Shown here: positions 43,674-56,443 of the stretch, piece by piece
How the letters are laid out: each line of letters begins with the position of its first letter
Numbering within the stretch: the first letter of the stretch is position 1
Assembly (NCBI RefSeq): GCF_013705725.1
Contig: NZ_CP055482.1
Span: 1 to 64,000, forward strand
Length of the DNA stretch: 64,000 nt
Reading direction: 5' to 3'
From: Klebsiella sp. RHBSTW-00484
GTDB lineage: Bacteria > Pseudomonadota > Gammaproteobacteria > Enterobacterales > Enterobacteriaceae
Program-made: the position numbers and the translations under genes
Notes under the pieces: model-generated
What the model was told of the DNA's origin: nothing
What the model saw: the letters and a program-made list of their open reading frames with translations, nothing else
Database searches by the model: none

Positions 43674-43730
43674 CCTGTTAAGGGGGAACCCTGACAGGGC
43701 TTCTCTTTGATTAAAATGAGGAGAGAAGAA
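43674..43730 (+). promoter_or_regulatory. Pseudoknot/SD-switch leader 1
   Basis: Hairpin CCTGT...ACAGG with inner GGG/CCC, loop GGAA. The following CTTCTC (43700-43705) can pair with the loop side (GGGGA, with G-U pairs) or perfectly with GAGAAG (43723-43728) in the ribosome site of the 125-residue gene. Confidence 0.6.
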
Positions 43731-44108
43731 ATGTCACATCTTGAATATGTTAATGAAGTTAAAGTGTCCGGGATAGTTATCAGTGCAATGGAGAAAGAAA
43801 TGACTGACGGTAACGTTGGGTTATTAATAAAGCTCAAAAACAGAATGAAGACTGAAATTAATGGTGAAATCGCTGAGAGAGAATTTTCTATTCAAATCAA
43901 AGTGTCACCAGAAATGTATTCAGGCTGTTTCACTGGTATAAATCAAGGTGATGAGTTAATGGTCTCCGGTTATCTTGTTGTGGATATTGTCACGTTGGAA
44001 GGGAGAGAGCACCCTCTTGACTACATGAGAGTCGTTGCAACAAGTAAGTTAGCTCACATACCTAAACCCCCCAAGGGTTTTGGGCAAAGTAGCTTTAGAC
44101 AGATCTGA
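43731..44108 (+). CDS. Small beta-rich protein, possible OB-fold (SSB-like)
   Basis: This 125-residue protein has the length and strand pattern of an OB-fold domain: NEVKVSGIVISAM, then FSIQIKVSPEM and GDELMVSGYLVVDIVTLEGRE, with a Pro/Gly-rich tail KPPKGFG. Single-stranded-DNA-binding proteins have this pattern, but the aromatic DNA-contact residues of SSB are not evident. I chose ATG 43731 behind GAGGAGAGAAG. Confidence 0.55.
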   Translation: MSHLEYVNEVKVSGIVISAMEKEMTDGNVGLLIKLKNRMKTEINGEIAEREFSIQIKVSPEMYSGCFTGINQGDELMVSGYLVVDIVTLEGREHPLDYMRVVATSKLAHIPKPPKGFGQSSFRQI

Positions 44109-44117
44109 CATTTAAAC

Positions 44118-44168
44118 CACCCTAAAGGGGAGAAATCCCTTCATGGGAGATCTCCCTTTGGAGGCCCC
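44118..44168 (+). promoter_or_regulatory. Pseudoknot/SD-switch leader 2
   Basis: The hairpin CCCTAAAGGGG...TCCCTTCATGGG is followed by AGATCTCCC, which can pair with the loop-side GGGGAGA or with the GGAG of the ribosome site. CATGGG can also pair with the CCCATG that contains the start codon. Confidence 0.5.
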
Positions 44169-45155
44169 ATGAAACAAAAAATTAGCTCGACATCATTTAT
44201 TGGTAAACAAATGGATTTTTTCTCTATATTCGATTTTGAAGAAGAGGAAAATGAAATAATACCCATAGTTGAGTCTCCGCTTGAATATATAAATAATGCA
44301 ATAGCCCAAAAGCAAAGCATGCAATCAGAAGAAAAACATTCTGGCCCGGAACTGGTGCCTCATGTGTCGGATGATGTTGCATTGCTAGGTCATTGTTCCA
44401 AATTACTCAACAATCAAATTCTGCATGGAATTAGTTTTGCTTCTGAAACTGATTATCTCTTCACTTTAGAAGAATACAATGCAGAATTAGGTGGTCTGGT
44501 TATCGACTGGGCTCCTGAAGATGTATATCAGTTATACGTCGTCGCAATGGAAGAGTCGTTGGAAAACGTTAAATATCTTGTCTTTACAAAATCACTCTAT
44601 ACAACTGATGAATTCGGAAATATCAAAGTGAATCCGCTTCTTGAAGCAGAAACACGTTGGTATATGTCGCAGTCATTTGAGCTTACATGTGCCACTCATG
44701 GTATAGATGCTATTGAGTTTAGGTCAGAGCTTAAAAAAAGCTTGTATGAATACACGCACAGTTTTGAAAGTGAAAATGTTAAATTATCTCAATATCATCA
44801 GGATAAAGAGATTATTTTGCATGATTGTAAGGAAGATATGGGATGGGATATCTTTTTCGACCGTGACTATTTATTGGCAGAAAATAAACTGGCAGTAAAA
44901 TGGACTGATCGGGATATAATGGATGTCTATTCTAAAGCATTTAAATCAACAATTAATTTGTTTGAAAAACTTGTCGTAAATAACAAGTTAACATTAAGGG
45001 ATACATCAGGTTGGGTTATCGTAAACCCTACATTTGAGCGCCAGTTCGAATGGATTGAATCTGAAGTATTCGAAATTGTAGGGACTCATCTTGGTTACAA
45101 CGTTGATGCTATCAGAAAACAGATGGTTACAGCGTGTAAGATGACCTTCAACTAA
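44169..45155 (+). CDS. Unknown 328-residue acidic protein
   Basis: This soluble acidic protein has no membrane segment. It contains two related halves: near residues 115-165 (VIDWAPEDVYQLYVVAMEES, then FGNIKVNPLLEAETRWYM) and near 242-300 (AVKWTDRDIMDVYSKAFKST, then SGWVIVNPTFERQFEWIE). The internal duplication is visible by eye. Function unknown. It lies just upstream of the CobS-like ATPase and could be its partner. Confidence 0.65.
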   Translation: MKQKISSTSFIGKQMDFFSIFDFEEEENEIIPIVESPLEYINNAIAQKQSMQSEEKHSGPELVPHVSDDVALLGHCSKLLNNQILHGISFASETDYLFTLEEYNAELGGLVIDWAPEDVYQLYVVAMEESLENVKYLVFTKSLYTTDEFGNIKVNPLLEAETRWYMSQSFELTCATHGIDAIEFRSELKKSLYEYTHSFESENVKLSQYHQDKEIILHDCKEDMGWDIFFDRDYLLAENKLAVKWTDRDIMDVYSKAFKSTINLFEKLVVNNKLTLRDTSGWVIVNPTFERQFEWIESEVFEIVGTHLGYNVDAIRKQMVTACKMTFN

Positions 45156-45156
45156 T

Positions 45157-45214
45157 ATGCCACTGGCAAACATCTGCCAGCGGGCGGTGTTTGCATTTTA
45201 CCGGAGTTTTAAAA
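45157..45214 (+). promoter_or_regulatory. Pseudoknot/SD-switch leader 3
   Basis: The stem is CTGGC/GCCAG (45163-45167 with 45176-45180). Loop-side GCAAACA (45166-45172) pairs perfectly with TGTTTGC (45188-45194) to give the pseudoknot, competing for two bases of the stem. The alternative helix differs from the others: CATTTT can pair with AAAATG, covering the start codon. Confidence 0.6.
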
Positions 45215-46267
45215 ATGACTAACGCCGCAACTATATTAGAAACCGAAAATTCATTACTGGAAGAAAATATTGGTAATCTGTTACCCGCAAATGTTATATC
45301 TACAAAAGCATATGCGAATAAGGAACAATATTACCTGGTTAAGGCCAAAGATTTGTTTGGTATTCCTGAAATGTCCGAGGATATGATAGTTCCAGTATTT
45401 AAACGTTTATCTCCACATCGTGCAAACCTGAATAAGGATTATATACCGAATGCTCGTATACTTGAGCAAGTAGTACAATTGCTCGTAAGTAACGATATAG
45501 ATTTAAGTGTATGCCTGAAAGGGGAGTCTGGTTCTGGTAAGACTGAAATGGCAATGTACATTAGCCATATGCTGAATTGGCCGCTAACCATAAAGCAAAT
45601 CAACAGTAATATTCGTGCTGATGAACTTGAAGGTGAGCGTAGTCTCATTAACGGAAACACCAGTTTTGTGCCCAGCGAGCTTGTAACGGCGTTTCAGGAA
45701 GGCCACCTCATTCTTCTGGATGAAGTGGACAAGATTGACCCTGATACCGCCGCGAAGCTGCATATGCCTATAGAGCGTAAGCCCTGGTCACTAGCCGCCA
45801 ACGGTGGCGAAGTGGTTAATGCCAATAAGTTTACGCGGTTTATGGGTACAGCAAACACAAACATGAGTGGGGGATCTCGTAAGTTCGTTTCATCACAGCG
45901 GCAGGATGCAGCGTTTATTAAACGCTTCCTGATTGTGGAGATGGAAAGGCCTTCAGAGGTTGCATTAACCAACGTTTTGCTTAAACGCTACAATAGCCTG
46001 CCTATGCTGGTAATTGAAAAATTCGTTTCGGTAGCCGTTGCAGTAAACAACATAGGAACTGAAGACAGTGTAATGGATATTCGTCAGCTTGTGGCATGGG
46101 TTGGAACGTCGATGACGTTAAAGACCATGTCCTTACTGGATACGTTTAAAATTGCTTTTGCGTCGGCTCTGCCTGCACATGCCAGTGGTATGGTGCTGGA
46201 AGCCATCGATTTAAAACTCGGTGACGATAAGAACCGTACAATGGAGTATTACACTGCAAAAAAGTAG
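45215..46267 (+). CDS. CobS-like MoxR-type AAA+ ATPase
   Basis: This 350-residue AAA+ protein has Walker A GESGSGKTEM near residues 108-117, Walker B LILLDEVDKI near 167-176, a sensor-1 segment FMGTANTNMSGG and an arginine-finger region FIKRFLIVEME. CobS and MoxR proteins act with a CobT/VWA partner as chelatases or protein-remodelling machines. Such a partner is present at 47852. Cobalamin genes are absent, so a remodelling role on the plasmid is more likely than cobalt insertion. ATG 45215 follows GGAG. Confidence 0.85.
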   Translation: MTNAATILETENSLLEENIGNLLPANVISTKAYANKEQYYLVKAKDLFGIPEMSEDMIVPVFKRLSPHRANLNKDYIPNARILEQVVQLLVSNDIDLSVCLKGESGSGKTEMAMYISHMLNWPLTIKQINSNIRADELEGERSLINGNTSFVPSELVTAFQEGHLILLDEVDKIDPDTAAKLHMPIERKPWSLAANGGEVVNANKFTRFMGTANTNMSGGSRKFVSSQRQDAAFIKRFLIVEMERPSEVALTNVLLKRYNSLPMLVIEKFVSVAVAVNNIGTEDSVMDIRQLVAWVGTSMTLKTMSLLDTFKIAFASALPAHASGMVLEAIDLKLGDDKNRTMEYYTAKK

Positions 46268-46305
46268 TTATAGATGGGACGAGTTATCAGAAGGCTGAAT
46301 GCCTT

Positions 46306-46575
46306 GTGACAGACTTTGCTCATCTTTCGTTTTACGGTTTTTTGAGTGCAGACGGGGATGAAACTTTCGCGATTGCACAGGAAGGAAATCAATATATAGG
46401 TCTTAAGCAGCACAATAATGACTATTCATTTATTTGTTATCAAGATTGTGACAAAGATATGGAAGCCATGATTAAGGGCCTTGAATCAAAAGGATTCATG
46501 TATCAAGGAAGTATTCAATCGACGTCTGTCGAGAGTGAATTTCCTGGAATTCTTTTAACAACACTTGAGAAGTAA
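46306..46575 (+). CDS. Small unknown protein without a pseudoknot leader
   Basis: This 89-residue acidic protein starts at GTG 46306, 38 bases after the CobS-like gene. Only a weak AAGG stands upstream. It has two cysteines (ICYQDCDKD) and no membrane segment. It is the one gene inside the block that lacks the switch-type leader. Confidence 0.55.
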   Translation: MTDFAHLSFYGFLSADGDETFAIAQEGNQYIGLKQHNNDYSFICYQDCDKDMEAMIKGLESKGFMYQGSIQSTSVESEFPGILLTTLEK

Positions 46576-46584
46576 TAATCTTAA

Positions 46585-46646
46585 CCCTATCGGGAAATCT
46601 TTCCCGACAGGGAGGTTTTCCCATTTTTTTAATCTGGAGAAAACCT
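46585..46646 (+). promoter_or_regulatory. Pseudoknot/SD-switch leader 4
   Basis: The hairpin CCCTATCGGG...CCCGACAGGG has loop-side GGGAAA (46592-46597). GGTTTTCCC (46614-46622) can pair with that loop or with GGAGAAAACC (46636-46645) at the ribosome site. Confidence 0.75.
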
Positions 46647-47774
46647 ATGACTTTCAATACTTCTAAACTTAATAAAGTTTCCGCTAAGCAAATCTGTGAT
46701 AACTTTGTAAAAGCACATCCTGATTTGTTGGAAGGTGCTGTTATAACAAAAATCGAAATCAGTGGTTGTCAGGGCTCTCGGCGTACCGATAAAATCGAAC
46801 TGTCCTATGGCGGCGATGATATAACGGACCAGAAGAGCGTGTCTAAAAGTGAAGTTCGCTGGATAGACATAAAGGCACTGAGTTTCAAAAGCACTATCAC
46901 TAGTCGAATTTCAACACTCTGTTCACGGTTGTGTATCCGCTATAGCAATATGTGGATTTTGCCTGTCGAAAGAATGGAGGAGTTTCTGGAAGAGGCACAA
47001 GAAATTGAACGTGAATTTCAAGCCGGTATCCAGAATGTGGTTGATAACTATGACACTCATATTCAGGCTGAGAAAGATCGCAGTCCGTTGATGTCAGATT
47101 TAATCGACCAGTTGAAATTAACGAAAGATGATTTTATTAAATCATTCCGGTTTAATCTGGCGCATTTCATTCCGTTTTCACCGATTAGTGTGGAGGGGGA
47201 TGAAACACAGGACTTTTATCAGGAACAACTGATAATCGATTTGGCCGATGAAGCTATGAAGGTTTATGCAAAAATCAGTAAAAATGATAATTTGCGTTCC
47301 AGCACGATTGACCGATTAAAACAGATGCAAGATAAAATCATTAGCTTTATGTTCATTCATAAAGAGGCGGTTGTTCTTGCAGAAGCTATCAAGCACGTCA
47401 TGAATAATTTACCCAAAGGCGCCATTTCTTCTCCCCGTGATGTTGCGGTGTTAAAGCAATGGTTCTATTTCATGAGTGATGCGTCAATGCTGAAACGTAT
47501 TATTTCTGGTGAGCAGAAAGTAACAGATTGGCTGGATTCCATTACCCGGTCATTCAATATTGATTCACAGGATAATACGGCTAACTCTCAGAATGCTTTT
47601 GAGGATGATGTTTTTTCTTCAGCAAATGTGTTCAGAGAAGATCCGCTTGAAGAAGTTGAGAAAAACGCAGTAACTGCACCTTTGTCTGCTGTTGTCCCTG
47701 AAGAAGATGTTTCCCTTCAGGCCAGTGGTAGTAATAGTGCTTTTAACAGCGAACTCGAACTGAACGGCTGGTGA
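46647..47774 (+). CDS. DUF3150-like protein between the CobS-like and CobT-like genes
   Basis: This 375-residue protein has a helical core. The stretch ISTLCSRLCIRYSNMWILPV followed by a coiled-coil-like ERMEEFLEEAQEIEREFQ resembles DUF3150 proteins, which often lie next to CobS/CobT-like genes in phages and plasmids. The C-terminal 80 residues are acidic and disordered. I infer that it is the third partner of the ATPase/VWA pair. Assignment is by motif memory and context. Confidence 0.65.
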   Translation: MTFNTSKLNKVSAKQICDNFVKAHPDLLEGAVITKIEISGCQGSRRTDKIELSYGGDDITDQKSVSKSEVRWIDIKALSFKSTITSRISTLCSRLCIRYSNMWILPVERMEEFLEEAQEIEREFQAGIQNVVDNYDTHIQAEKDRSPLMSDLIDQLKLTKDDFIKSFRFNLAHFIPFSPISVEGDETQDFYQEQLIIDLADEAMKVYAKISKNDNLRSSTIDRLKQMQDKIISFMFIHKEAVVLAEAIKHVMNNLPKGAISSPRDVAVLKQWFYFMSDASMLKRIISGEQKVTDWLDSITRSFNIDSQDNTANSQNAFEDDVFSSANVFREDPLEEVEKNAVTAPLSAVVPEEDVSLQASGSNSAFNSELELNGW

Positions 47775-47794
47775 TTTAGTCTTGTAAAAATAAC

Positions 47795-47851
47795 CCCAGA
47801 TGGGTACTTCACCATCTGGGTGAGTACCCTTTATTAATTAAAGGTACTCAA
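47795..47851 (+). promoter_or_regulatory. Pseudoknot/SD-switch leader 5 (clearest example)
   Basis: A perfect 9 bp stem, CCCAGATGG (47795-47803) / CCATCTGGG (47812-47820), holds the loop GTACTTCA. The adjacent TGAGTACC (47821-47828) can pair with the loop (one bulged T) or, perfectly over 8 bp, with GGTACTCA (47843-47850), which is the ribosome site. The two pairings exclude each other. Confidence 0.85.
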
Positions 47852-49864
47852 ATGAAATTTGATTTGAAATCTTCACCCCGCCATATTCAACGCCTGACGA
47901 ATATAGCCAGCGTGATAAGCGGTATAAGTGGTCTTAATGTTGTAATAGACAATAAGGTACATACACCTTATTTCAACAGCGAAAAGAACGTTTGTGTATT
48001 ACCTAATGGTGATTATAGCGATGAGAAATTCGTCAAGCTAATTGAAGGGTTTATATGTCATGAAGCTGGACACGGTCGCTATACAGAACATGAAGTATAC
48101 CGTGAAGCTTTTGTTGGGGAACTGATTAATGCAGATGGCTTCATCAGTATAGATGATAAGCTGAACGCTGAATTTCAAACCCTTAAACAAAAGAAAATCG
48201 CATATGCCCGGGCTTACCGTCTACATGGACTTATTAATCTCTTTGATGATGTCCAGATGGAAGAGAAAACGGGTATTGACTATCAGGAGGCAAAAAAGCG
48301 CCTCGCGGTAAGTTATGCCTTGATGGTTGAAGCTGGGCGAATGACGGTTGATGTTTCTTCAAGCCCTCAAAACCCTGTTCAGTTTATTGAAATGTTCCTG
48401 CTTAATACATTGCGGGTTAACGTTCTCCAGCAAGAAGGGCATAAAGAAACGCTTGATCCATTTTTCGATTATGCAAAGAAAATCCTTGAGCCTGTAATTT
48501 TAGAAGTTGATGAGATTATTCATCAGGCTCTAAGTTGCAAAAGTACGCAAAATTGCGATTCTCTGGCGCGTAAAACCTTGGCTCTTTTAGAGCGTTTACG
48601 GGATGAAGCCAAAGAGAAACAGCAAGAAGAGGATCAGAATAAAGACCCGCAAAACGACACAGACAATTCATCTGGCTCTGAGAATGAACCTGATTCCGAA
48701 ACCAATGGTGACAACCAGGGTGAAGGGGATGGAGATTCCGAAGAGCAAGACGATGATGCTGGTAATGGTAAAGCACCTATGGAAGATAATGAGCCGTCAG
48801 AGCAATCTAAAGGGGATGAAGAAAGTGCTGAGAGCGGTAACGGTGAACCTGATGGAGAGCCCGAAACCGATGAATCGGCTAACCCTGACTCGTATGATGC
48901 TGACGGAACTCCTTCCCAAATCGACAGTTCCAATGGAAATCCTTCCGATGGGGAAAGTAACTTTTCTCCTGAGCAGTGGAGTATCCTTGCCAAATTGCTG
49001 GATGATTTTCTTAACAGCGATGAGGAAAGTGAAGATTTTCATGAGGCTCTTGCAAATGAAATCTCCGTAATTGCTGCCAGTGTGTCGGATGAGGTTAAAG
49101 CTGAATTTGGTGCAAATGAGTGGGATCTTCCAGATTTGCTTATTGATCTGAATGTCTACAATGAAGCATTAAATATCAGTCAGACTCTTGGGGCAGACTT
49201 ATCTGTTTTACAGCAGGTAAAAATGCGTGGTCAATTTAAAACCCGTGATAGAGGCTTGTCATTCGACATTAATCGATTGATCCAGTCTCCGATGGGTGTG
49301 AGGGATGTATTCCGGTCGCAAAGCGAATCTAAAAACCGGGGCCACGTCGGCTTGGTTATTGTTCGTGATATTTCAGGTTCTATGATTCTGGATCACCGTT
49401 ATATCCACGCAATTAAGACTGACCTTGCATTAACTTTGGCGATTGAAGCTAATTCAAAAATGCACGTTGCTAATGTGATTTATCCGTTTGTCGACAAAGA
49501 CTTTGAAGTTATCAAAACGTTTGATGAAAACGCGGAAGAGACGCTTTCAAAATTTTCACTCGGCTGTAAAGGGAATAATACCCCAACGGGTTCCGCCTTA
49601 ATGGCTGCTGTAGAATTGTTACTTGAAAGCCAGTTTGACAGGAAAATTGTTTTCCTTATTACTGATGGTTATCCGACAGAGTCTGATTACACCATTAGTG
49701 ATGTTCTTACGGTAGCTGAAAGTAACGGTATTGAAATCGCTGGTGTAGGCATTAAAACTGATGAGTTAATTGGTTTTGATGAGGGCACCTTCGTAAATGT
49801 TGATGATATTTCTTTACTGCCGAATGTGGTCAGTAAATTAGTACATCAAATTCTATCTAATTAA
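47852..49864 (+). CDS. CobT-like protein with HExxH metalloprotease and VWA domains
   Basis: This 670-residue protein has an N-terminal zinc-peptidase-like motif (CHEAGHGRYTEHE, His at about 70 and 74). A helical region is followed by a long acidic Ser/Glu/Asp/Asn-rich linker (about 250-370) and a C-terminal von Willebrand A domain with the MIDAS sequence RDISGSM near 507-513, plus the conserved Thr/Asp positions (GNNTPTGSALMAA, LITDGYPTES). This is the CobT plan. It should work with the AAA+ protein at 45215. The peptidase motif suggests protein cleavage or metal binding. Confidence 0.85.
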   Translation: MKFDLKSSPRHIQRLTNIASVISGISGLNVVIDNKVHTPYFNSEKNVCVLPNGDYSDEKFVKLIEGFICHEAGHGRYTEHEVYREAFVGELINADGFISIDDKLNAEFQTLKQKKIAYARAYRLHGLINLFDDVQMEEKTGIDYQEAKKRLAVSYALMVEAGRMTVDVSSSPQNPVQFIEMFLLNTLRVNVLQQEGHKETLDPFFDYAKKILEPVILEVDEIIHQALSCKSTQNCDSLARKTLALLERLRDEAKEKQQEEDQNKDPQNDTDNSSGSENEPDSETNGDNQGEGDGDSEEQDDDAGNGKAPMEDNEPSEQSKGDEESAESGNGEPDGEPETDESANPDSYDADGTPSQIDSSNGNPSDGESNFSPEQWSILAKLLDDFLNSDEESEDFHEALANEISVIAASVSDEVKAEFGANEWDLPDLLIDLNVYNEALNISQTLGADLSVLQQVKMRGQFKTRDRGLSFDINRLIQSPMGVRDVFRSQSESKNRGHVGLVIVRDISGSMILDHRYIHAIKTDLALTLAIEANSKMHVANVIYPFVDKDFEVIKTFDENAEETLSKFSLGCKGNNTPTGSALMAAVELLLESQFDRKIVFLITDGYPTESDYTISDVLTVAESNGIEIAGVGIKTDELIGFDEGTFVNVDDISLLPNVVSKLVHQILSN

Positions 49865-49869
49865 CTCTA

Positions 49870-49934
49870 CCCAATCGGGGCAAAATGACGCCCGGTTGGG
49901 TCGTTTTGCTCCCTGAAGGATTAAGGAGCAATAT
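49870..49934 (+). promoter_or_regulatory. Pseudoknot/SD-switch leader 6
   Basis: The stem CCCAATCGGG (49870-49879) / CCCGGTTGGG (49891-49900) holds the loop GCAAAATGACG. CGTTTTGCTCC (49902-49912) can pair with loop GCAAAA or, through TTGCTCC, with GGAGCAA (49925-49931) at the ribosome site, 7 bp perfect. Confidence 0.85.
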
Positions 49935-50156
49935 ATGACTCAGATAAAGACTTACCGTGTCGAGTATGAAAAAGTCGGGATGATGCATCGTGTCCGTATT
50001 TTTGGTCGCATGGGTGAAGTTGTCAAAAGTGAATTGCCAAAAGAAGTAATTCTCCGGGATGTATCTATACCGGAGGGTAATGTAAAAATGGCAACATCAA
50101 TGGTTGATGGTTTTATCCAGCGTCTTGAAAATAATGGCTTCAAGTCTGAAGCGTAA
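49935..50156 (+). CDS. Small basic unknown protein
   Basis: This 73-residue protein, translated from its own switch leader, has a short beta-rich N-terminus (YRVEYEKVGMMHRVRIFGRM) and no membrane segment. Its size and charge would allow nucleic-acid binding, but no fold is recognised. It lies between the CobT-like and primase-like genes. Confidence 0.65.
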   Translation: MTQIKTYRVEYEKVGMMHRVRIFGRMGEVVKSELPKEVILRDVSIPEGNVKMATSMVDGFIQRLENNGFKSEA

Positions 50157-50161
50157 TTGTT

Positions 50162-50270
50162 AAGGGCCATTATGGCCCTTATTCTTAGATTCTGCGTTGT
50201 GGGTTTCTCCCTGTTTTCTGCATCGCAGAGGGCATTGAGAAACCCACAATGCCAGATAAGAGAGAACAAA
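50162..50270 (+). promoter_or_regulatory. Hairpin plus long pseudoknot leader 7
   Basis: A 19 bp palindrome, AAGGGCCAT-T-ATGGCCCTT (50162-50180), comes first. Then TCTGCG (50191-50196) pairs with CGCAGA (50224-50229), and the enclosed TTGTGGGTTTCTC (50197-50209) pairs over 13 perfect bases with GAGAAACCCACAA (50237-50249) beyond the first stem. This is strict H-type pseudoknot order. GTTTTCT in the loop can instead pair with AGAGAAC at the ribosome site. Confidence 0.75.
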
Positions 50271-51503
50271 ATGACTTATGCATCACCGGCTGTTAAGCGT
50301 ACACCACATGAAGTATCTGAGCACTTTATTAAAATGGTTCACGCTCGTGTTGCGGAAGCCTCTGGCTGGCGCTATGTATTCGATAGAATACCGGCATTTA
50401 AAGATGCTTGTGATAAAGCACCTAGCCAGGTTCCTTGCCCCTTCACCGGGGACGGGAAATCAAAGTTCCGTTTCCGAAAAAAAGACCTCTATACCGGTTG
50501 TGCTATTCACAATGATTTCCCTGTGAATGCATTTTGTGACGGTATTGATGTGCTGGCAGAGTATTACAAGTTGAGCAAAACCCAGACTTGTAAGAAGATC
50601 TTGACTGATTTCTTTGGTATGGATCTGTACGCTCCGTTAACTGATGCGGATCTCGAAAGTGAACGGCGTTATAAATCAACAGTTCGTGCAACCGAAACGC
50701 TTGATAGCGATGAAGTTGAAAAACGGCTGCGTAAACTTGAAGTGTTATATCACTATACAGGTGAAATCAAGCCAGGGAGTCCTGTGGGCATGTATCTCCG
50801 AAATCGTGGTCTTAAACGAATTCTGAGTAATCTGCCTAAGGATCTTGGTCTGAACAACCGACTTTACTATATGGATAAGTCACTAGAGAAACCGTCAACT
50901 TACCCGGGAATGATCGCAATTTATCGTGATACACGGGGACGTCCTCTGACAATCCATAGAACGTTCGTAGAGAAAAATGGTGATAAGGCTCGGGTAGAGA
51001 ATCCGAAACTGATGATGAAACCGCCTGCCGATATGACCGGCGGCTCAATTCAGCTGTACGACCCACACTACAACTCAGGTACCCGTACCTGGACGTTAGG
51101 TGTGGCTGAAGGCATAGAAAACGCGCTGTCAGTAACTGAAGCGACTTCAACACCGTGTTGGGCTGCGAGCTCTGCCTGGTGTCTTGAAAACGTTGAAGTG
51201 CCGGATAGTCTACTGCCTCCTCCGGATGTGAAAGAAATACAGTTTTACGTCTGGGCGGATAAGGATGTTGTGAATTCAAGAGGCGCTTGCCCGGGTATGG
51301 AGTCAGCAATACGACTTCAGGCCCGAATGGAAGAGTTTTTTGCAAAGCGATATCCCACTTCAGAGCTGACAATTAAAGTCTTTGAACCAGATTTCGATAT
51401 TCCTGAAGGGACGAAAGGAATCGACTGGAACGAAGTATTGAAATTAACAGGACCTGATGGCTTCCCAGTAAAATGGGCTCCTGAATGTCTTGCTCAGCTT
51501 TAA
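50271..51503 (+). CDS. Toprim primase-like protein
   Basis: This 410-residue protein has a Cys/His-containing N-terminal region that may bind zinc (PCPFTGDGKS, TGCAIHNDFPVNAFC, residues about 45-90). The C-terminal Toprim domain has the catalytic Glu in GVAEGIENALSV near residue 281 and the WADKD motif near 325, as in plasmid and phage primases. ATG 50271 behind AGAGAG is chosen. An upstream open frame from 50157 would translate the whole structured leader and is rejected. Probable role: priming of plasmid DNA after transfer or during replication. Confidence 0.8.
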   Translation: MTYASPAVKRTPHEVSEHFIKMVHARVAEASGWRYVFDRIPAFKDACDKAPSQVPCPFTGDGKSKFRFRKKDLYTGCAIHNDFPVNAFCDGIDVLAEYYKLSKTQTCKKILTDFFGMDLYAPLTDADLESERRYKSTVRATETLDSDEVEKRLRKLEVLYHYTGEIKPGSPVGMYLRNRGLKRILSNLPKDLGLNNRLYYMDKSLEKPSTYPGMIAIYRDTRGRPLTIHRTFVEKNGDKARVENPKLMMKPPADMTGGSIQLYDPHYNSGTRTWTLGVAEGIENALSVTEATSTPCWAASSAWCLENVEVPDSLLPPPDVKEIQFYVWADKDVVNSRGACPGMESAIRLQARMEEFFAKRYPTSELTIKVFEPDFDIPEGTKGIDWNEVLKLTGPDGFPVKWAPECLAQL

Positions 51504-51507
51504 ACCC

Positions 51508-51550
51508 GATAACTCCCCCGCCTTTTTAGGTCGGGGGGGGTTATCTCTTT
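51508..51550 (+). terminator. Hairpin with C/G tracts after the primase-like gene
   Basis: GATAACTCCCCCG pairs with CGGGGGGGGTTATC across a T-rich loop, five bases after the stop. The T tract after it is broken (TCTTT). Termination may be partial. The roughly 160 bases that follow are AT-rich without a gene. Confidence 0.6.
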
Positions 51551-51716
51551 AGTGTTTAATTTCATAAATACTAAACAGATAATTAGATTTCCTTCGTGAA
51601 AATCACCTGTTATTCAGGTTTTTTTTACGGCTGAGATGCTTGCTCAGTTAAATAAATGTGCGGTACATCTGGCTACGGTCGGTTGTATGACGTGGTATAT
51701 CCATATAACTCAAAAC

Positions 51717-51776
51717 CCCTGACGGGAGTATTACCGTTAGGGTGATGCTCATCGTTTAATATAAGAGAGCATTGTT
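51717..51776 (+). promoter_or_regulatory. Pseudoknot/SD-switch leader 8
   Basis: A 9 bp stem, CCCTGACGG (51717-51725) / CCGTTAGGG (51734-51742), holds loop GAGTATTA. The directly adjacent TGATGCTC (51743-51750) pairs with all eight loop bases (two G-U) or with GAGCATTG (51767-51774) at the ribosome site. Geometry is the same as leader 5, but the sequence differs. Confidence 0.85.
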
Positions 51777-52301
51777 ATGAAAACTGAAAATCAAGACTTA
51801 TTTAATAAGTTTGCTGCTGTGATTTCATCTCGTATCGTTGAGCAACCATCATCATGCTATTATCTTCATGATAGTGAAGTTGACCTTACGATTTTAAAAC
51901 ACAGCATAATAGATAAGGACAAAAACCTGTTGTATGTAATTCGCCCTTCAGGTACATGTTTGTTACGCTGTGATAAATATTTTTTTCCGAATTACTATCT
52001 TACCTGTCGTGGAGATTATAAAGCATTCATTTATGTGCATTTTAATCTTGCTACAGGAAAAGCGGAAGATATCACGTGGCAACAAGCTTTAGAAGTTTTG
52101 TCCAAACCGGGAAGGCCCCCATTGAGAGGTTCTCTTGGAAGATTTGATTATTTAAAACTTGTGGTTGATGATCTTCGTACCCGTGGTTATGCCGATTTTC
52201 TACCGGCATATAATCTGGATGGACTTCGTCATTTTGCAGTAAAGGATGAGCGACCATCTCTTGTCAGTTATATCGACAATGTCATAGCTCTTTGCGCATA
52301 A
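51777..52301 (+). CDS. Unknown 174-residue protein
   Basis: This soluble protein has no recognised domain and a mixed alpha/beta composition with four cysteines. It opens the second half of the block, after a terminator-like hairpin, and has a complete switch leader. It is shorter than the five paralogues that follow and does not clearly belong to them. Confidence 0.65.
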   Translation: MKTENQDLFNKFAAVISSRIVEQPSSCYYLHDSEVDLTILKHSIIDKDKNLLYVIRPSGTCLLRCDKYFFPNYYLTCRGDYKAFIYVHFNLATGKAEDITWQQALEVLSKPGRPPLRGSLGRFDYLKLVVDDLRTRGYADFLPAYNLDGLRHFAVKDERPSLVSYIDNVIALCA

Positions 52302-52325
52302 ACATATCACATATTTTAACTACAT

Positions 52326-52378
52326 CCCTGATGGCCAATCCCATCGGGGGGGCCCTCAGCATTTAACCTGGAGGCCTT
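52326..52378 (+). promoter_or_regulatory. Pseudoknot/SD-switch leader 9 (weak pseudoknot)
   Basis: The stem CCCTGATGG (52326-52334) / CCATCGGGG (52341-52349) is strong. GGCCCTC (52351-52357) can pair with GGAGGCC (52370-52376) at the ribosome site. The loop side offers only GGCC, so the pseudoknot helix would be short and would compete with the stem. Confidence 0.55.
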
Positions 52379-53257
52379 ATGAAATTAGCTACAGATCTTG
52401 TCAATGCAGTTCTGATAAAGGATGGTGTTGTACCGGTTTCCATTACTGAGATGCCTGTACAGTCTCTTGTAAATCCTTTGACACAAGTGCATCTCAGCCT
52501 GTACCTGAAAACAACGCATTTATCGCGGTTCGTCCCTGACTATGTCGAGACTCTGAAAGATTGTCCGGTATCGTATGATATCGGCCTTGAACTTCAGCAG
52601 TGTATCAGCAGTGCTGAATTGCTCTGCGAAGACATGGAATCGCTTGAATTTATCTCTGTATGGATAGAACTCTATACGTGTAATTCAAAGCAACAACGGT
52701 TTGAGGAAAGTAACTTTTCTCTTCGTTCCGAAGATATCGAGCTGGCTAAGATGCTAGCTTGTTCCCATGATCTCTTGATTAGCCAGGCTGCTTGTTTCTG
52801 GCTTTTATATTTTGATGACTTCATGAGATATGTGCGTAATAGACTCTGTACTTTACTCAGAGAAGTTTTAATACTGATTGCCGGACTGCGGAATGCATTC
52901 TTGCACCGTAATGAAGATCAGTTAATTAAGAGAGTGAAGTACGGGAATGAAATGCTGGAGGTAACTCTTAAAGCTATTGCACTATGTTCAATGGACCGGT
53001 ATCTGAAATCATTTACCTCTTTACGAACAGAAGCGGCAGCTTCGGGTTTTATCAAATGTGTTAAGTCTTATATCAGTACAGGGTGGAGACATGGTTATAT
53101 AGTCTGTCACTATTATCGAAATGGACAGTCTCTTGGTAAGTCATTACCACTTTTTATAAGTGAGACGTCTGAATACAGTATACAGAAACGAGTAAATCGT
53201 CTTATATCTTCCACGATATCAGGGCGAAATAAAGATTTAGGTCTTTCTGATTTCTGA
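52379..53257 (+). CDS. Unknown paralogue 1 of the tandem five-gene family
   Basis: This 292-residue protein starts with a helix of the form KLATDLVNAVLIKDG, then a beta-rich stretch and a conserved-looking helix (DYVETL). The middle contains HDLLISQAACFWLLYFDDFM, which aligns by eye with DGKVLIARYALKQFFHSDF in the fourth member. No catalytic motif or membrane segment. A dispersed 11 bp motif encodes EESNFS (52707). Confidence 0.65.
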   Translation: MKLATDLVNAVLIKDGVVPVSITEMPVQSLVNPLTQVHLSLYLKTTHLSRFVPDYVETLKDCPVSYDIGLELQQCISSAELLCEDMESLEFISVWIELYTCNSKQQRFEESNFSLRSEDIELAKMLACSHDLLISQAACFWLLYFDDFMRYVRNRLCTLLREVLILIAGLRNAFLHRNEDQLIKRVKYGNEMLEVTLKAIALCSMDRYLKSFTSLRTEAAASGFIKCVKSYISTGWRHGYIVCHYYRNGQSLGKSLPLFISETSEYSIQKRVNRLISSTISGRNKDLGLSDF

Positions 53258-53266
53258 TTAACACTA

Positions 53267-53324
53267 CCCATCTGGGGATTACTCCCCTGATGGGCGTAAT
53301 CCCTTTTTATAACGAGAGGATTAC
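53267..53324 (+). promoter_or_regulatory. Pseudoknot/SD-switch leader 10
   Basis: The stem is CCCATC-T-GGGG (53267-53277) / CCCC-T-GATGGG (53284-53294), loop ATTACT. GTAATCC (53296-53302) can pair with loop-side GGATTAC (53276-53282) or perfectly with GGATTAC (53318-53324) immediately before the ATG. The loop and the ribosome site are the same heptamer. Confidence 0.85.
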
Positions 53325-54260
53325 ATGAAAATTATCGAGAAAATCATTAATGCATTTCTGATGTCACGCAATCACGCTGTGAAGGTCAGCAATGTTATCT
53401 GCTTAACTGGTTGTGACGGTAAATTTACTGGTATACGCTGTGACGCCGATGTTTCATTTGATTTTCTTCATTCGTATGCTAACGCATACAGTTCAATATT
53501 TTTAGATATCCCGTTCCCTGGGTTCGAAGACCAGAACATTACGGATTGTGTTAAACGTCAGTTAGATGTAGTGAAAAATAAGCAGAATCGGTCTTTCTTT
53601 ATTGACCATATTAGATTCCCGGTTACTGTCAAGGAAGGATTCACTCTACAGCGCGGTGGTAGTTACGACGTGACTGATAGTGAATATAACAAGCAACGAT
53701 TGCTGCATTTAACTCGACATGGACGTTTTGGTGAAGACTATCTCACGTACAAAGAAGGACTGAGTCCCTTCTTTTCATTTGTGAATGTAGAATTACATGA
53801 AACTATGAAGGAAGGTATTCGTTTAGCACTTGATGTTTTAAATAAGATAACAACTGACCAACCTGACCGTCTTATAAAGGACTTTAAATATCATGACTGT
53901 TACAATAGTTATAATGTTCAAATATTTTGTAAGGGGTTGCCAGTTGATATTCTGGAAACGATGATCGCACCTGACTTTTTGTCATCCGACATGTCTGGTA
54001 GTCGTCAGATCATCAAAAATGCACGCCGCTATCTTAAAGGCTTTGCCCACAGTAATCGTGTTTACATGAAGTACGGTTGGCGCTTAGCGGATATCGACAC
54101 GTCTGATTATGCTAAAGTCATGTCAGATAAAGAAATGCATGCCAGAGATGATCTTAAAATGTTTTGCGGTGTCTTTGTTAAAGAGTGCTTCGCATCCGGA
54201 AAAGATGAATACGAAGCCTACCTTCAAGAAAGACAACACGCTATTCGTTACGGGTATTAA
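53325..54260 (+). CDS. Unknown paralogue 2 of the tandem five-gene family
   Basis: This 311-residue protein has the shared N-terminal plan (KIIEKIINAFLM, then beta strands and DFLHSYANAYSS) and a long helical middle (ELHETMKEGIRLALDVLNKI). It has a Cys-containing beta region (HDCYNSYNVQIFCKG). Function unknown; soluble. Confidence 0.65.
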   Translation: MKIIEKIINAFLMSRNHAVKVSNVICLTGCDGKFTGIRCDADVSFDFLHSYANAYSSIFLDIPFPGFEDQNITDCVKRQLDVVKNKQNRSFFIDHIRFPVTVKEGFTLQRGGSYDVTDSEYNKQRLLHLTRHGRFGEDYLTYKEGLSPFFSFVNVELHETMKEGIRLALDVLNKITTDQPDRLIKDFKYHDCYNSYNVQIFCKGLPVDILETMIAPDFLSSDMSGSRQIIKNARRYLKGFAHSNRVYMKYGWRLADIDTSDYAKVMSDKEMHARDDLKMFCGVFVKECFASGKDEYEAYLQERQHAIRYGY

Positions 54261-54283
54261 AACTTATTTTCAACTTATCTAAT

Positions 54284-54337
54284 CCCTGAGGGAACTCTTC
54301 CCTTGGGGAGAATTCCCTCTTAACCGAGGGCAATAAA
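54284..54337 (+). promoter_or_regulatory. Pseudoknot/SD-switch leader 11
   Basis: The stem CCCTGAGGG / CCCTTGGGG (54284-54292 with 54300-54308) has loop AACTCTT. AGAATT (54309-54314) pairs with five of six loop bases. The next bases, CCCTC, pair with GAGGG (54326-54330) at the ribosome site. Confidence 0.65.
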
Positions 54338-55258
54338 ATGAAAGCTATTTATAAATTAATTGAAGCGATGCTGGTGAAGATGGGTTTTGAAGGTGCTGCG
54401 ATCCAAAGTGTCAATCTGGAAACCGGAGTCATTCAGAGTCTTGTTGTGAAGGTTGATATTCCAGTCCGGACTTTAAAACCGCATTTAATGCGTTATCTGC
54501 GCGACTGGGAGCCTTTATGGGGCCCTGACGTGGATAACCATCCTGTTGCACAATATTGCTCAGGAGCTGCGTTGTTGAAGGCTGGGCCGGTCACTCTTGA
54601 AACCTTGCAGTTTGAGGTTTCAGTGTCAGCAGCTCACCTGCGTCTTGTTGATGTTGAGCCAGACTGGCTGAATGAAGGTGTGAACCGTGAAAAACTGGAC
54701 TATGTCTATTATCGTTCCAGCAATGCAGACAAGGATTTAATCCTTGGTATGGTTGAAAACGGTCACAATTTCATCAGCCATCTTCATGGCCAGTTACGGT
54801 CACGCTTATCTCAGGTTCTTCCGCTTATTTTCGCAGTTACAGAAAAGGTTGCGGAAAGTTCAGTTCCACAAGTGTTAACCAGGTTCTTCAGTGTTGACCA
54901 TCAAATCAATACTCAGATAGTAGTTGAACCGGTACCCGTTTCAGTTGCAGACCAGATAATTTCTGCCAACTGGGATGTGAGTAGTATTTCTGGGGCTGAC
55001 AAGTTCCTGAACCATGTTAATCGTTACCTGTCGGGTAGGGTGATGAAGCGGCGCATTTACGCTGTTATTGAATCTTGCAACGATGGCCCTTTAACTCTCG
55101 ACGCGAATCTAGGTTGCTTTACTTCACCTCTTCTCGTCACTGAGTACAAAATGGTTCAATCGCATTCTTCATCGCTGTACAGAAAGGCTATAAATAACTC
55201 GCTTAAGCAAATCAATTCGTATGCTCCAGAGCATTCGGATGATCTGCTTTACATGTAA
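54338..55258 (+). CDS. Unknown paralogue 3 of the tandem five-gene family
   Basis: This 306-residue protein starts KAIYKLIEAMLVKMG and continues with the family's beta-rich region (LVVKVDIPVRTLKPHLMRYL). The middle helical region (ILGMVENGHNFISHLHGQL) sits where the other members have their most alike segment. GC content is slightly higher than in its neighbours. Function unknown. Confidence 0.65.
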   Translation: MKAIYKLIEAMLVKMGFEGAAIQSVNLETGVIQSLVVKVDIPVRTLKPHLMRYLRDWEPLWGPDVDNHPVAQYCSGAALLKAGPVTLETLQFEVSVSAAHLRLVDVEPDWLNEGVNREKLDYVYYRSSNADKDLILGMVENGHNFISHLHGQLRSRLSQVLPLIFAVTEKVAESSVPQVLTRFFSVDHQINTQIVVEPVPVSVADQIISANWDVSSISGADKFLNHVNRYLSGRVMKRRIYAVIESCNDGPLTLDANLGCFTSPLLVTEYKMVQSHSSSLYRKAINNSLKQINSYAPEHSDDLLYM

Positions 55259-55269
55259 TTAATAAATAA

Positions 55270-55331
55270 CCCTAAGGGAAGCTCAATCCCTTTAGGGGAT
55301 GCTTCCTTTATTCTTTCAAGAGGAAGTAGAT
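55270..55331 (+). promoter_or_regulatory. Pseudoknot/SD-switch leader 12
   Basis: The stem CCCTAAGGG (55270-55278) / CCCTTTAGGG (55288-55297) is followed by GCTTCC (55301-55306). This can pair with loop-side GGAAGC (55277-55282) or through CTTCC with GGAAG (55322-55326) in the ribosome site. Confidence 0.75.
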
Positions 55332-56267
55332 ATGTTTAATGAAAACGATGATATAAATTTTGTTAGCGCCATGCTTAAAAAACAACTTGGTCTGACAGTA
55401 ATTCAACAGGATATTAAACTGTTTGATAAGTCTAATTTCTTTGAACAACTCTCATTCAAAGCAGAAGTGGCGACTGATGATTTGTTATTCTATCTTGATT
55501 CATATATCGAAGAGTTGATAAAACATAAAGCGCCGTATTCTGAAACCGAAGTTCTCCGGAATAAAATCAAATACCTTTTTAAAGTATATGAAAAGTCTGG
55601 GTTTCAGAAAATAACAATTCGTGGTTATCATAATGCGCATAGCACTATGAAATTTTTCGATATAGCAACATCAATATTGGCGGCCTCAGAATCGTTGCCT
55701 GAATATGATGAATTTCAGAAAGGTCTCAGAAAGGAAATTTATCAGAATAGAATGAGTGTTGACGGGAAAGTTCTTATTGCCCGGTATGCACTGAAGCAAT
55801 TTTTCCATTCTGATTTTGGCGACTTTATCTATGAGTTTGAGAAAAAAATAACAGAGTGTCTATTTAATTCTCTTCAGGTTATCAAGTCTGTTAAAAATTC
55901 ATTTCATAGTTTAGGTCAATATCAATATCACCGTCGTGTAAATCATGAACTGATGTTGCATCTTGAGCTGAACACTGATGAATACCCGGCTTGCATGCCT
56001 GATCTTTACATTGGTTTCAATGAGTCTGAAGGCACGACGGGGGCGTATTGCGATGATGAAAAACTCATTCGTCTTTATACCTGCGTAAGTTCCGGACACG
56101 ATGTGCCGGTTATGATGAACGTTCGTTTCACTGGCAGTGATGGGAGTGTTAAGTGTGAATCCTCGCACGGAACCTTCTCTTCTGTGGGACCTTGTGGCCG
56201 AGTACAAATCTGTGACAGAGCAGCGTTGATCCATGAAGCGATTGAAGAGTTTCGGGACGGTGTTTAA
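55332..56267 (+). CDS. Unknown paralogue 4 of the tandem five-gene family
   Basis: This 311-residue protein aligns clearly with the next gene product: NFVSAMLKKQLGLTV against NYVRAVLADIGIDF, DGKVLIARYALKQFF against DGQVLIARFALEQFW, and a common C-terminal GRVQICDRAALIHEA against GRVKIHDRQDLIYEV. This makes a recent tandem duplication likely. ATG 55332 behind GAGGAAG is chosen over an upstream start that would translate the leader. Function unknown. Confidence 0.7.
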   Translation: MFNENDDINFVSAMLKKQLGLTVIQQDIKLFDKSNFFEQLSFKAEVATDDLLFYLDSYIEELIKHKAPYSETEVLRNKIKYLFKVYEKSGFQKITIRGYHNAHSTMKFFDIATSILAASESLPEYDEFQKGLRKEIYQNRMSVDGKVLIARYALKQFFHSDFGDFIYEFEKKITECLFNSLQVIKSVKNSFHSLGQYQYHRRVNHELMLHLELNTDEYPACMPDLYIGFNESEGTTGAYCDDEKLIRLYTCVSSGHDVPVMMNVRFTGSDGSVKCESSHGTFSSVGPCGRVQICDRAALIHEAIEEFRDGV

Positions 56268-56382
56268 CCGGTCCTCATTCTCACCTCATCGTAAAAAGTA
56301 ACTTTGTTCGACTAAATGATTGCGTTCACTTTCCTGTTTAACTGGCAGGATAGAATGATTTAGAAAAACATATTTTTATCCA

Positions 56383-56443
56383 CCCACTGGGGAAGTTGCT
56401 CCCCTATGGGGCACTTCCTTTCAATTTTCCTGAGGAAGTGAAA
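56383..56443 (+). promoter_or_regulatory. Pseudoknot/SD-switch leader 13
   Basis: The stem is CCCA..GGGG (56383-56392) / CCCC..TGGG (56401-56410), loop AAGTTGCT. GCACTT (56411-56416) pairs with loop AAGT-GC (one bulged T). CACTTCC (56412-56418) pairs perfectly with GGAAGTG (56434-56440) at the ribosome site. Confidence 0.85.

What the first reader, a model, noticed from the sequence alone, without database searches (positions are those of the whole stretch)
43674..56443. A family of 13 intergenic pseudoknot leaders with mutually exclusive SD sequestration
Almost every gap between genes from 43.7 to 56.4 kb contains the same three-part design in different sequence. First a GC-rich hairpin (often CCC...GGG) lies just after the upstream stop codon. 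Next a 6-9 base segment, call it X, can pair with the hairpin loop to make an H-type pseudoknot. Finally, X is also complementary to the ribosome site of the next gene. Best cases: X = TGAGTACC (47821), TTGCTCC (49906), TGATGCTC (51743), GTAATCC (53296), CACTTCC (56412) and GGTTTTCC (46614). Since X changes from gene to gene while both complementary partners change with it, the pairing is strongly supported by in-window covariation. X can serve only one partner at a time, so pseudoknot formation should free the SD and its loss should close it. IncI/IncB replicons use one pseudoknot to activate repA/repZ translation. A whole multigene block under such switches is not something I know of. A reported tandem-pseudoknot RNA class near plasmid/ICE DNA genes (STAXI) should be compared.
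Basis: partly seen in the sequence, partly recalled or inferred. Interest (0 to 1): 0.95.

Follow-up and report, generated by a model that had tools for sequence, protein, structure and literature searches.

The report
Mobile-element genes locked by decoy-RNA switches
In one stretch of a large plasmid, ten of fourteen genes are each preceded by their own roughly 60-base leader of one shared design, predicted to hide the ribosome's landing site in the RNA and carrying a built-in look-alike of that site that would let it open again; matching leaders precede gene after gene in other plasmids and, likely, in integrated mobile elements of other bacteria.

Summary
Of 14 gene starts at 43.7-56.4 kb, 10 carry a ~60-nt leader: hairpin (arms a/a', uAACCC...GGG), segment B in it, segment X, then D (SD and spacer). 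X is complementary to both B and D, and all three differ from gene to gene. The design marks 28 of 51 block genes in IncHI and IncC but 2 of 182 control genes. A covariance model built only from IncHI-related leaders finds IncC, Vibrio, Aeromonas and ICE-like leaders; none in F, a K-12 stretch or IncC tra at E<=1. It is not STAXI, radC or another Rfam family.

The pseudoknot reading is doubtful: the linker is <=3 nt in 27 of 33 leaders, and B is often already paired in the hairpin. Better supported is strand exchange: closed = hairpin + X:D; open = B:X. Closed is favoured by ~10 kcal/mol; in 34 of 52 leaders B:X dominates before the SD is transcribed. A review reports a strong translational attenuator upstream of bet in SXT, also present in IncA/C plasmids; bet of related plasmids has this leader. 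What opens the switch in cells is unknown. Main rival: B:X as a transcription terminator (T-run in 28 of 69).

The parts
43674..43730 (+). Leader 1 (gene start 43731): a 43674-43680, B 43680-43687, a' 43692-43698, X 43701-43708, D 43720-43727
   Evidence: weakest member: CM E 0.45
44110..44168 (+). Leader 2 (44169), compact variant: X TCTCCC, GGAG and the start codon close together in one hairpin; missed by the descriptor
   Evidence: sequence; fold; a CM match begins here (44118-44213, E 0.0022) but runs past the start codon to an internal ATG, so it is weak support
46585..46646 (+). Leader of DUF3150 gene 46647: a 46585-46591, B 46592-46601, a' 46606-46612, X 46613-46622, D 46637-46646
   Evidence: in CM training set
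47795..47851 (+). Leader of VWA gene 47852: a 47795-47801, B 47803-47809, a' 47814-47820, X 47822-47828, D 47843-47849
49870..49934 (+). Leader of 73-aa gene 49935: a 49870-49876, B 49877-49886, a' 49894-49900, X 49903-49912, D 49925-49934
   Evidence: best score in the window
51718..51776 (+). Leader of gene 51777: a 51718-51723, B 51726-51735, a' 51736-51741, X 51741-51750, D 51767-51776
   Evidence: 214 nt from the upstream annotated stop
52325..52378 (+). Leader of gene 52379: a 52325-52328, B 52328-52336, a' 52346-52349, X 52351-52359, D 52368-52376
53267..53324 (+). Leader of gene 53325: a 53267-53272, B 53276-53282, a' 53289-53294, X 53296-53302, D 53318-53324; triple co-change against HI2
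54283..54337 (+). Leader of gene 54338: a 54283-54288, B 54288-54294, a' 54304-54309, X 54313-54319, D 54326-54332
55270..55331 (+). Leader of gene 55332: a 55270-55274, B 55274-55282, a' 55293-55297, X 55301-55309, D 55319-55327
56383..56443 (+). Leader of gene 56444: a 56383-56386, B 56389-56396, a' 56407-56410, X 56413-56420, D 56432-56439
   Evidence: 115 nt from the upstream annotated stop
45156..45214 (+). Leader of AAA ATPase gene 45215: hairpin and loop:X present, X:SD weak; incomplete member
   Evidence: no descriptor hit; fold
45215..46267 (+). AAA_5 ATPase gene
   Evidence: Pfam PF07728, E 7e-32
46647..47774 (+). DUF3150 gene
   Evidence: Pfam PF11348, E 2e-22
47852..49864 (+). VWA-domain gene
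   Evidence: Pfam PF00092, E 9e-8
50271..51503 (+). DUF7146/Toprim_3 gene (its leader is of another design)
   Evidence: Pfam PF23639, PF13362

Best explanation
Each leader is predicted to act as a cis-acting RNA switch that keeps its gene closed by default, because segment X would pair with the Shine-Dalgarno region (D), and that likely opens when X pairs instead with B, a look-alike of that region inside the upstream hairpin. Closed state: hairpin a:a' plus X:D. Open state: B:X, a nested hairpin that breaks a:a' and frees the SD; the two states exclude each other. Shown by calculation: closed is the ground state; in 34 of 52 leaders the RNA cut off just before the SD favours B:X, while the full leader returns to a:a' + X:D. 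Inferred: freshly made RNA would be translatable for a short window before the lock closes, so that only mRNA loaded during transcription, or mRNA on which a ribosome or protein covers arm a, is translated. The element is autonomous (arm a lies 54-65 nt before the start codon in the window), repeats in front of most genes of the block, and belongs to an RNA family shared by IncHI-related, IncC and other mobile elements. The opening trigger is not known.
For: 28 of 51 block genes against 2 of 182 control genes, Fisher 6e-20. X:D and B:X above shuffles and specific to their own leader. The CM contains only the closed hairpins, yet leaders collected with it still show own B:X over cross, p 4e-9 in 70 non-redundant leaders, training leaders included, and again in three lineage sets without training leaders. 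Triple co-change at 53325 against HI2: B GGATTAC->GGATCAC, X GTAATCC->GTGATCC, D GGATTAC->GGATCAC. Energies, in 33 leaders that the descriptor accepts: closed better in 32, median -29.9 against -19.9 kcal/mol; predicted SD-free 0.05, rising to 0.26 when arm a is masked, up in 29. Stepwise folding, 52 accepted leaders: B:X median 0.85 before the SD, X:D 0.96 in full; 33 of 52 show both, chance hits 68 of 612. The bet leaders of IncA, pAsa4b, pAsmA and pVPH1 score 42-50, pVPH1 bet is a CM match (E 0.008), and a review states that bet of SXT is held down by a strong translational attenuator also present in IncA/C plasmids.
Against: No expression or probing data. I wrote the descriptor after reading these leaders, so the window block is not an independent test of it. 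Stepwise equilibrium is not kinetics, and 19 of 52 leaders do not show the relay; in the window 4 of 10 (43731, 46647, 47852, 53325) stay below 0.5 for B:X before the SD. Column covariation is modest: double changes kept 9/12 (B:X) and 9/11 (X:D) against 22/62 and 20/48 in slid controls (p 0.013, 0.018); a:a' shows none (7/19, p 0.75). The bet leader of IncC itself is missed by the descriptor and reaches only E 0.061 with the CM; its fit with a bulge is my reading of the sequence and of the fold. A T-run follows X in 28 of 69 leaders, which would also suit a terminator. Five of nine further loci with relatives of these genes have no CM match at E<=0.05 (L048, L053, L090, L091, L093).
Confidence: 0.6

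Rival explanations
1. Transcription attenuator: B:X plus the following U-tract is an intrinsic terminator between genes, the a:a' hairpin is its antiterminator, and X:D is secondary.
For: T-run of 4 or more within 9 nt after X in 28 of 69 leaders (HI 5/15, ICE-like f9 11/16, other 11/25, IncC-like 1/13), T well above A there in HI, f9 and other. B:X is often the favoured fold just when the U-tract would be made. Terminator-like sites are over-represented in 42.4-57.5 kb, both strands together: 26 against 11.0, sd 3.2.
Against: IncC-like leaders have the same design with a T-run in only 1 of 13, and in a first count of 45 leaders T content after X was about that of the rest of the loop. The T maximum lies around the sixth to eighth base after X in HI and f9. 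The published bet precedent is called translational.
Confidence: 0.2
2. One reading: an H-type pseudoknot (a:a' and B:X together) opens the SD.
For: B lies between a and a' and pairs with X.
Against: Linker a'->X <=3 nt in 27 of 33 with a 3-7 bp stem; B at least half paired inside the hairpin in 32 of 52. That such short linkers cannot span the stem is stereochemistry recalled from the pseudoknot literature and was not modelled.
Confidence: 0.08
3. Translational coupling of the erm type: a ribosome ending the upstream gene covers arm a, so B:X forms and the SD opens.
For: Masking arm a raises predicted SD-free in 29 of 33; arm a starts within 12 nt of the upstream stop in 23 of 58.
Against: 18 of 58 leaders lie more than 40 nt from the upstream annotated stop; a search for small ORFs ending near arm a gave candidates, mostly TTG or GTG starts, for 7 of these 18 and none for 11. 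So this cannot be the general trigger.
Confidence: 0.3
4. RNA thermometer, since IncHI transfer is temperature-sensitive (recalled).
For: SD lies in a hairpin.
Against: Predicted unpaired SD moves only from 0.07 at 22-30 C to 0.10 at 42-50 C (medians) and exceeds 0.5 in 0 of 52 at any of five temperatures.
Confidence: 0.02

Closest known systems
[quoted passage not shown] 2013, not held and not read; passages of the review PMC4542580 read)
   Same: Position upstream of bet; bet leaders of IncA, pAsa4b, pAsmA and pVPH1 carry this design (pVPH1 also by CM). [quoted passage not shown]
   Different: Reported there for one gene. Here one design sits before most genes of whole blocks, with a B/X/D strand exchange. 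The SXT sequence itself was not available here, and the IncC bet leader fits only with a bulge.
STAXI RNA (Rfam RF01728; PMC2864571, passages read)
   Same: Near DNA-handling genes; pseudoknot proposed.
   Different: STAXI is a pseudoknot repeated at least two, usually three times, often with UUCG loops. No CM match in this plasmid contig or the IncC record; the host assembly does carry two STAXI places elsewhere, on contig C1.
radC RNA (RF01754)
   Same: Listed as an RNA with probable cis-regulatory role in Proteobacteria (table in PMC2864571, passage read); radC-type genes in mobile elements recalled.
   Different: 149-position model, no match at E<=1 in 7 genomes or records.
IncI/IncB repZ/repA pseudoknot (recalled)
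   Same: Plasmid cis-RNA controlling SD access through alternative pairings.
   Different: Single replication gene, antisense RNA and leader peptide; here many genes, no pseudoknot support.
erm-type translational attenuators (recalled)
   Same: Four-strand logic: 1:2 + 3:4 closed, 2:3 open.
   Different: No general leader peptide; 18 of 58 leaders far from a stop.

Membership tests
STAXI RNA RF01728 | Match to the Rfam covariance model | tested here: not met
   No STAXI in window, L002, L004, L008 at E<=1; in G000 two STAXI hits, both on contig C1, none on C2 that holds the window
STAXI RNA RF01728 | Pseudoknot repeated two or three times in tandem | tested here: not met
   One ~60-nt leader per gene start in the window
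radC RNA RF01754 | Match to the Rfam covariance model | tested here: not met
   0 of 7 genomes or records at E<=1
Any Rfam 15 family | Match at or near gathering score over the leaders | tested here: not met
   Window, L002, L004, L008 at E<=1, L142-L148 at E<=0.5, L006 and L009 at gathering: only hits far below gathering, one of which (Atu_C8, L004 3139-3230, 25 of 50 bits) overlaps a leader
SXT/IncA/C bet translational attenuator | Located directly upstream of bet | tested here: met
   Descriptor hits at IncA, pAsa4b, pAsmA and pVPH1 bet, not at IncC bet; pVPH1 bet is a CM match at E 0.008, IncC bet 0.061
SXT/IncA/C bet translational attenuator | Lowers translation in a reporter assay | not testable with these tools
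   Reported for SXT in the review; original paper not held
erm-type attenuator | Translated ORF ending at arm 1 | tested here: not met
   As a general feature: 23 of 58 within 12 nt, 18 of 58 beyond 40 nt
H-type pseudoknot SD switch (repZ-like) | Hairpin and loop:X helix able to coexist | tested here: inconclusive
   Linker <=3 nt in 27 of 33, B paired in hairpin in 32 of 52; no 3D model made
Intrinsic terminator | U-tract directly after the GC-rich stem | tested here: inconclusive
   28 of 69 leaders, 1 of 13 in IncC-like

The most novel reading that the evidence does not exclude
A new, mobile-element-wide class of RNA lock: each gene of a block carries its own leader in which a built-in decoy of the ribosome site holds the anti-SD strand while the RNA is being made, giving a brief translatable window before the mRNA shuts itself. 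The same fold is kept before dozens of unrelated genes while its pairing sequence is rewritten gene by gene, so a plasmid or ICE can carry a long, heavily transcribed block that stays almost silent as protein until a common trigger opens it.
Probability: 0.4. Interest if true: 0.92.

Novelty: new variant of a known kind. Interest (0 to 1): 0.82.

Why it matters
Large conjugative plasmids and ICEs carry long conserved blocks of genes (ssb, bet, exo, AAA/VWA/DUF3150, methylases, antirestriction) whose control is poorly known. If each gene bears its own lock of one RNA family, then transcript levels mislead about protein levels, one reported attenuator (bet of SXT) becomes the first seen member of a large class, and a search for a common trigger becomes possible. 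It also offers natural sets of sequence-divergent, same-fold switches for studying co-transcriptional strand exchange.

Tried and rejected
Rfam for a known family: no match near gathering; STAXI and radC by direct search: not in the plasmid contig. Column-wise covariation over 25 ortholog groups: weak, probably because registers slip; reported as such. Terminator reading: T content first looked like loop background (45 leaders), later a T-run was found in AT-rich lineages, so kept as main rival. Upstream-stop coupling as the general trigger: rejected by distances. Thermometer: rejected. The descriptor is uninformative in GC-rich loci: L093, L095, L097 have many hits on both strands and in shuffles. 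Loci without a CM match at E<=0.05: L048, L053, L090, L091, L093, five of nine given. Ten literature searches listed no paper that describes such a multi-gene family; three papers were opened, passages only (PMC2864571, PMC4542580, PMC9299015); Garriss 2013 is not held. The DUF3577 RNA motif is recalled only; the stretch with a leader before a DUF3577 gene (L142) gave no Rfam match over that leader.
Full report
WHERE IT IS. The window is part of an IncHI-type plasmid contig (262,877 bp contig C2 of a 6.9 Mb assembly). Its 46.3-52.4 kb is 99.9-100% identical to plasmid records of Klebsiella michiganensis and K. grimontii, about 91% to a pHCM1-type group and 74% to an IncHI2-type group (groups named from typing lines and recall). 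The block from 42.8 to 57.4 kb follows a trhI-type helicase gene (annotated so in the pHCM1 record; UvrD domains here) and holds an AAA_5 ATPase, DUF3150, VWA and Toprim_3 gene among proteins without Pfam match.

WHAT IS THERE. Reading the gaps, I wrote a descriptor with five segments: arm a, B, arm a', X, D, where a:a' is a hairpin, B lies between its arms, X follows, and D is within 20 nt of the start codon; X must pair with both B and D. It accepts 10 of the 14 gene starts of the block. The four others are 44169 (compact variant, SD and start codon in one hairpin), 45215 (hairpin and loop:X, weak X:SD), 46306 (short gap, nothing) and 50271 (a different long hairpin). Because the descriptor was written after reading these leaders, the other elements are the fairer test.

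BEYOND CHANCE. Over all ATG/GTG/TTG of both strands, the six best + strand hits are gene starts of the block; 5 + hits and 1 - hit reach 50 against a mean of 0.4 (maximum 2) in 10 shuffles. At gene starts, scores of 42 or more occur in 10 of 14 (this block) and 18 of 37 (IncC block, one start unannotated), against 0 of 48 (K-12 chromosome stretch), 1 of 48 (F, of 55 features fetched), 1 of 42 (IncC tra and backbone, of 56 features fetched) and 0 of 44 (ORFs I took as genes in the rest of the window); 28 of 51 against 2 of 182, Fisher 6e-20. For 65 gene starts picked from annotation in five elements, X:D is above shuffles (Fisher 6e-14; 22 of 65 singly below 0.05) and B:X, with X chosen from X:D alone, too (6e-20; 29 of 65); X prefers its own hairpin to other leaders' (p 8e-9).

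ONE RNA FAMILY. I aligned 18 descriptor-chosen leaders from the window, L001, L002 and the related L004 and L005 (typed IncU by MOB-suite) and built a covariance model of the closed hairpins, with the structure given by me. In 12 loci not used for training it gave 105 matches at E<=10; of those at E<=1 none lay in F, the K-12 stretch or IncC tra. In the four annotated IncC-like loci (L008, L009, L092, L111), 22 matches have E<=0.05; all 22 are on the coding strand, 18 end on an annotated start codon and 4 on unannotated ORFs of 30, 47, 30 and 48 codons (my count; ORFs). In whole genomes, own assembly included, it rings in 24 of 369 of the same class at E<=0.01 and in 18 of 388 of the same order at E<=0.001; all 8 matches listed for the window's own assembly lie in this block. 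Only 13-14 candidates per genome were scored, so these are lower bounds and other matches may be missed. Matches gather in a family with 1.9-2.6 Mb genomes (f9; Pasteurellaceae is my guess): five short stretches of three such genomes and two stretches from other families gave 37 matches at E<=0.05, 31 of them before ORFs of 50 codons or more and 6 on the reverse strand of another match, including leaders before ArdC-like, DUF3577, DUF3560 and N6-methylase genes. No Rfam family covers them. Of nine further loci with relatives of these genes, five gave no match at E<=0.05.

CO-CHANGE. At gene 53325 the window and HI2 differ by one coordinated triple change: B GGATTAC->GGATCAC, X GTAATCC->GTGATCC, D GGATTAC->GGATCAC; several other diverged orthologs keep both pairings with different letters, one (L001 14043) gives no descriptor hit. 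Column counts over 25 groups are weaker: double changes kept 9/12 for B:X and 9/11 for X:D against 22/62 and 20/48 in slid controls (p 0.013, 0.018), and 7/19 for a:a' (p 0.75). Leaders collected by the model, which does not contain B:X, still pair B with their own X better than with others (70 non-redundant, training leaders included, p 4e-9; own partner in the top 5% in 24 of 70; shuffle p<0.05 in 14 of 70), and this repeats in f9 (n 16, p 3e-5), others (n 34, p 4e-5) and IncC-like (n 17, p 0.002).

NOT A PSEUDOKNOT, RATHER STRAND EXCHANGE. The linker between a' and X is <=3 nt in 27 of 33 leaders and B is at least half paired inside the hairpin in 32 of 52. Closed (a:a' + X:D) beats open (B:X) in 32 of 33, median -29.9 against -19.9 kcal/mol; predicted SD-free is 0.05, and 0.26 when arm a is masked. 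Folding growing RNAs of 52 leaders gives, by median: a:a' 0.96 up to a'; B:X 0.74 up to X and 0.85 just before the SD; then a:a' 0.95 and X:D 0.96 in the full leader. B:X exceeds 0.5 before the SD in 34 of 52; both steps hold in 33 of 52 (26 with a:a' as well) against 68 (8) of 612 chance hits from shuffles. Within the window 6 of 10 show B:X above 0.5 before the SD and 4 do not. These are equilibrium values, not kinetics, and the leaders were chosen by the descriptor.

WHAT IT DOES. The most likely reading is a translational lock with a decoy. [quoted passage not shown] Garriss 2013 itself not held). Bet leaders of IncA, pAsa4b, pAsmA and pVPH1 fit the descriptor (42-50); that of IncC does not, but folds into the closed form with SD and AUG paired and, by eye, pairs B with X across one bulge. 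What opens the lock is open: arm a is within 12 nt of an upstream stop in 23 of 58 leaders but beyond 40 nt in 18, so ribosome coupling can serve only some; temperature has little predicted effect. The main rival is termination at B:X, with a T-run in 28 of 69 leaders (HI 5/15, f9 11/16, other 11/25, IncC-like 1/13).

CONSENSUS. Of 45 leaders, 37 have CCC in the 5' arm and GGG in the 3' arm, 3 the reverse; the 39 aligned on CCC read (u)AACCC-N4-GGG with A at -2 in 35 of 39. Arm a to start codon is 54-65 nt in the window, whatever the distance to the upstream gene.

VERDICT. The kind (a translational attenuator with alternative pairings) is known; the family, the decoy design and its use across whole blocks are new as far as the searched library goes.

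Noticed in passing
window 50182-50264: Leader of the toprim gene has another design: a long hairpin (13+ bp) conserved at 85% DNA identity between this plasmid and IncHI1B-type plasmids, the only piece of 46.3-52.4 kb that blastn matched there.
   Followed up: partly
L008 551, 1595, 6430, 10262, 14676; L092, L106, L107, L009, L108, L111: A second repeated element GTGNGATAGCTGGTCNCC(A/C)AAAACAAACAGCA with covarying stem (GCGA/TCGC, GAGA/TCTC, GAGG/CCTC) and AGCTG/CAGC, pseudoknot-like, in IncC-like blocks, in several cases ahead of leaders with long gaps; absent from window, L002, L004 and L112; no Rfam match in L008.
   Followed up: partly
window 51636-51722: Small ORF of 28 codons (MLAQLNKCAVHLATVGCMTWY...) ending in arm a of the 51777 leader; its start is alike in pHCM1 and HI2 but its stop moves (read).
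   Followed up: partly
L008:1088, L009:12447, L092:2001, L111:7795: Covariance-model matches end on ATG of ORFs of 30, 47, 30 and 48 codons that are not annotated, so the leaders may reveal small genes.
   Followed up: partly
window, 16 places, e.g. 42489 and 56295: Palindrome AAAGT(T/A)ACTTT occurs 16 times in the window and not in the fetched IncC stretch L008; possible operator.
   Followed up: no
G000:C1:919495-919672 and 883344-883488: Two STAXI RNAs above the family cut-off lie elsewhere in the host assembly, not on the plasmid contig.
   Followed up: no
window 55332-56267 and 56444-57400: The last two genes of the block are paralogs (27% identity over 311 aa); 53325 and 54338 are weakly related, so some leaders may be duplicated with their genes.
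   Followed up: no
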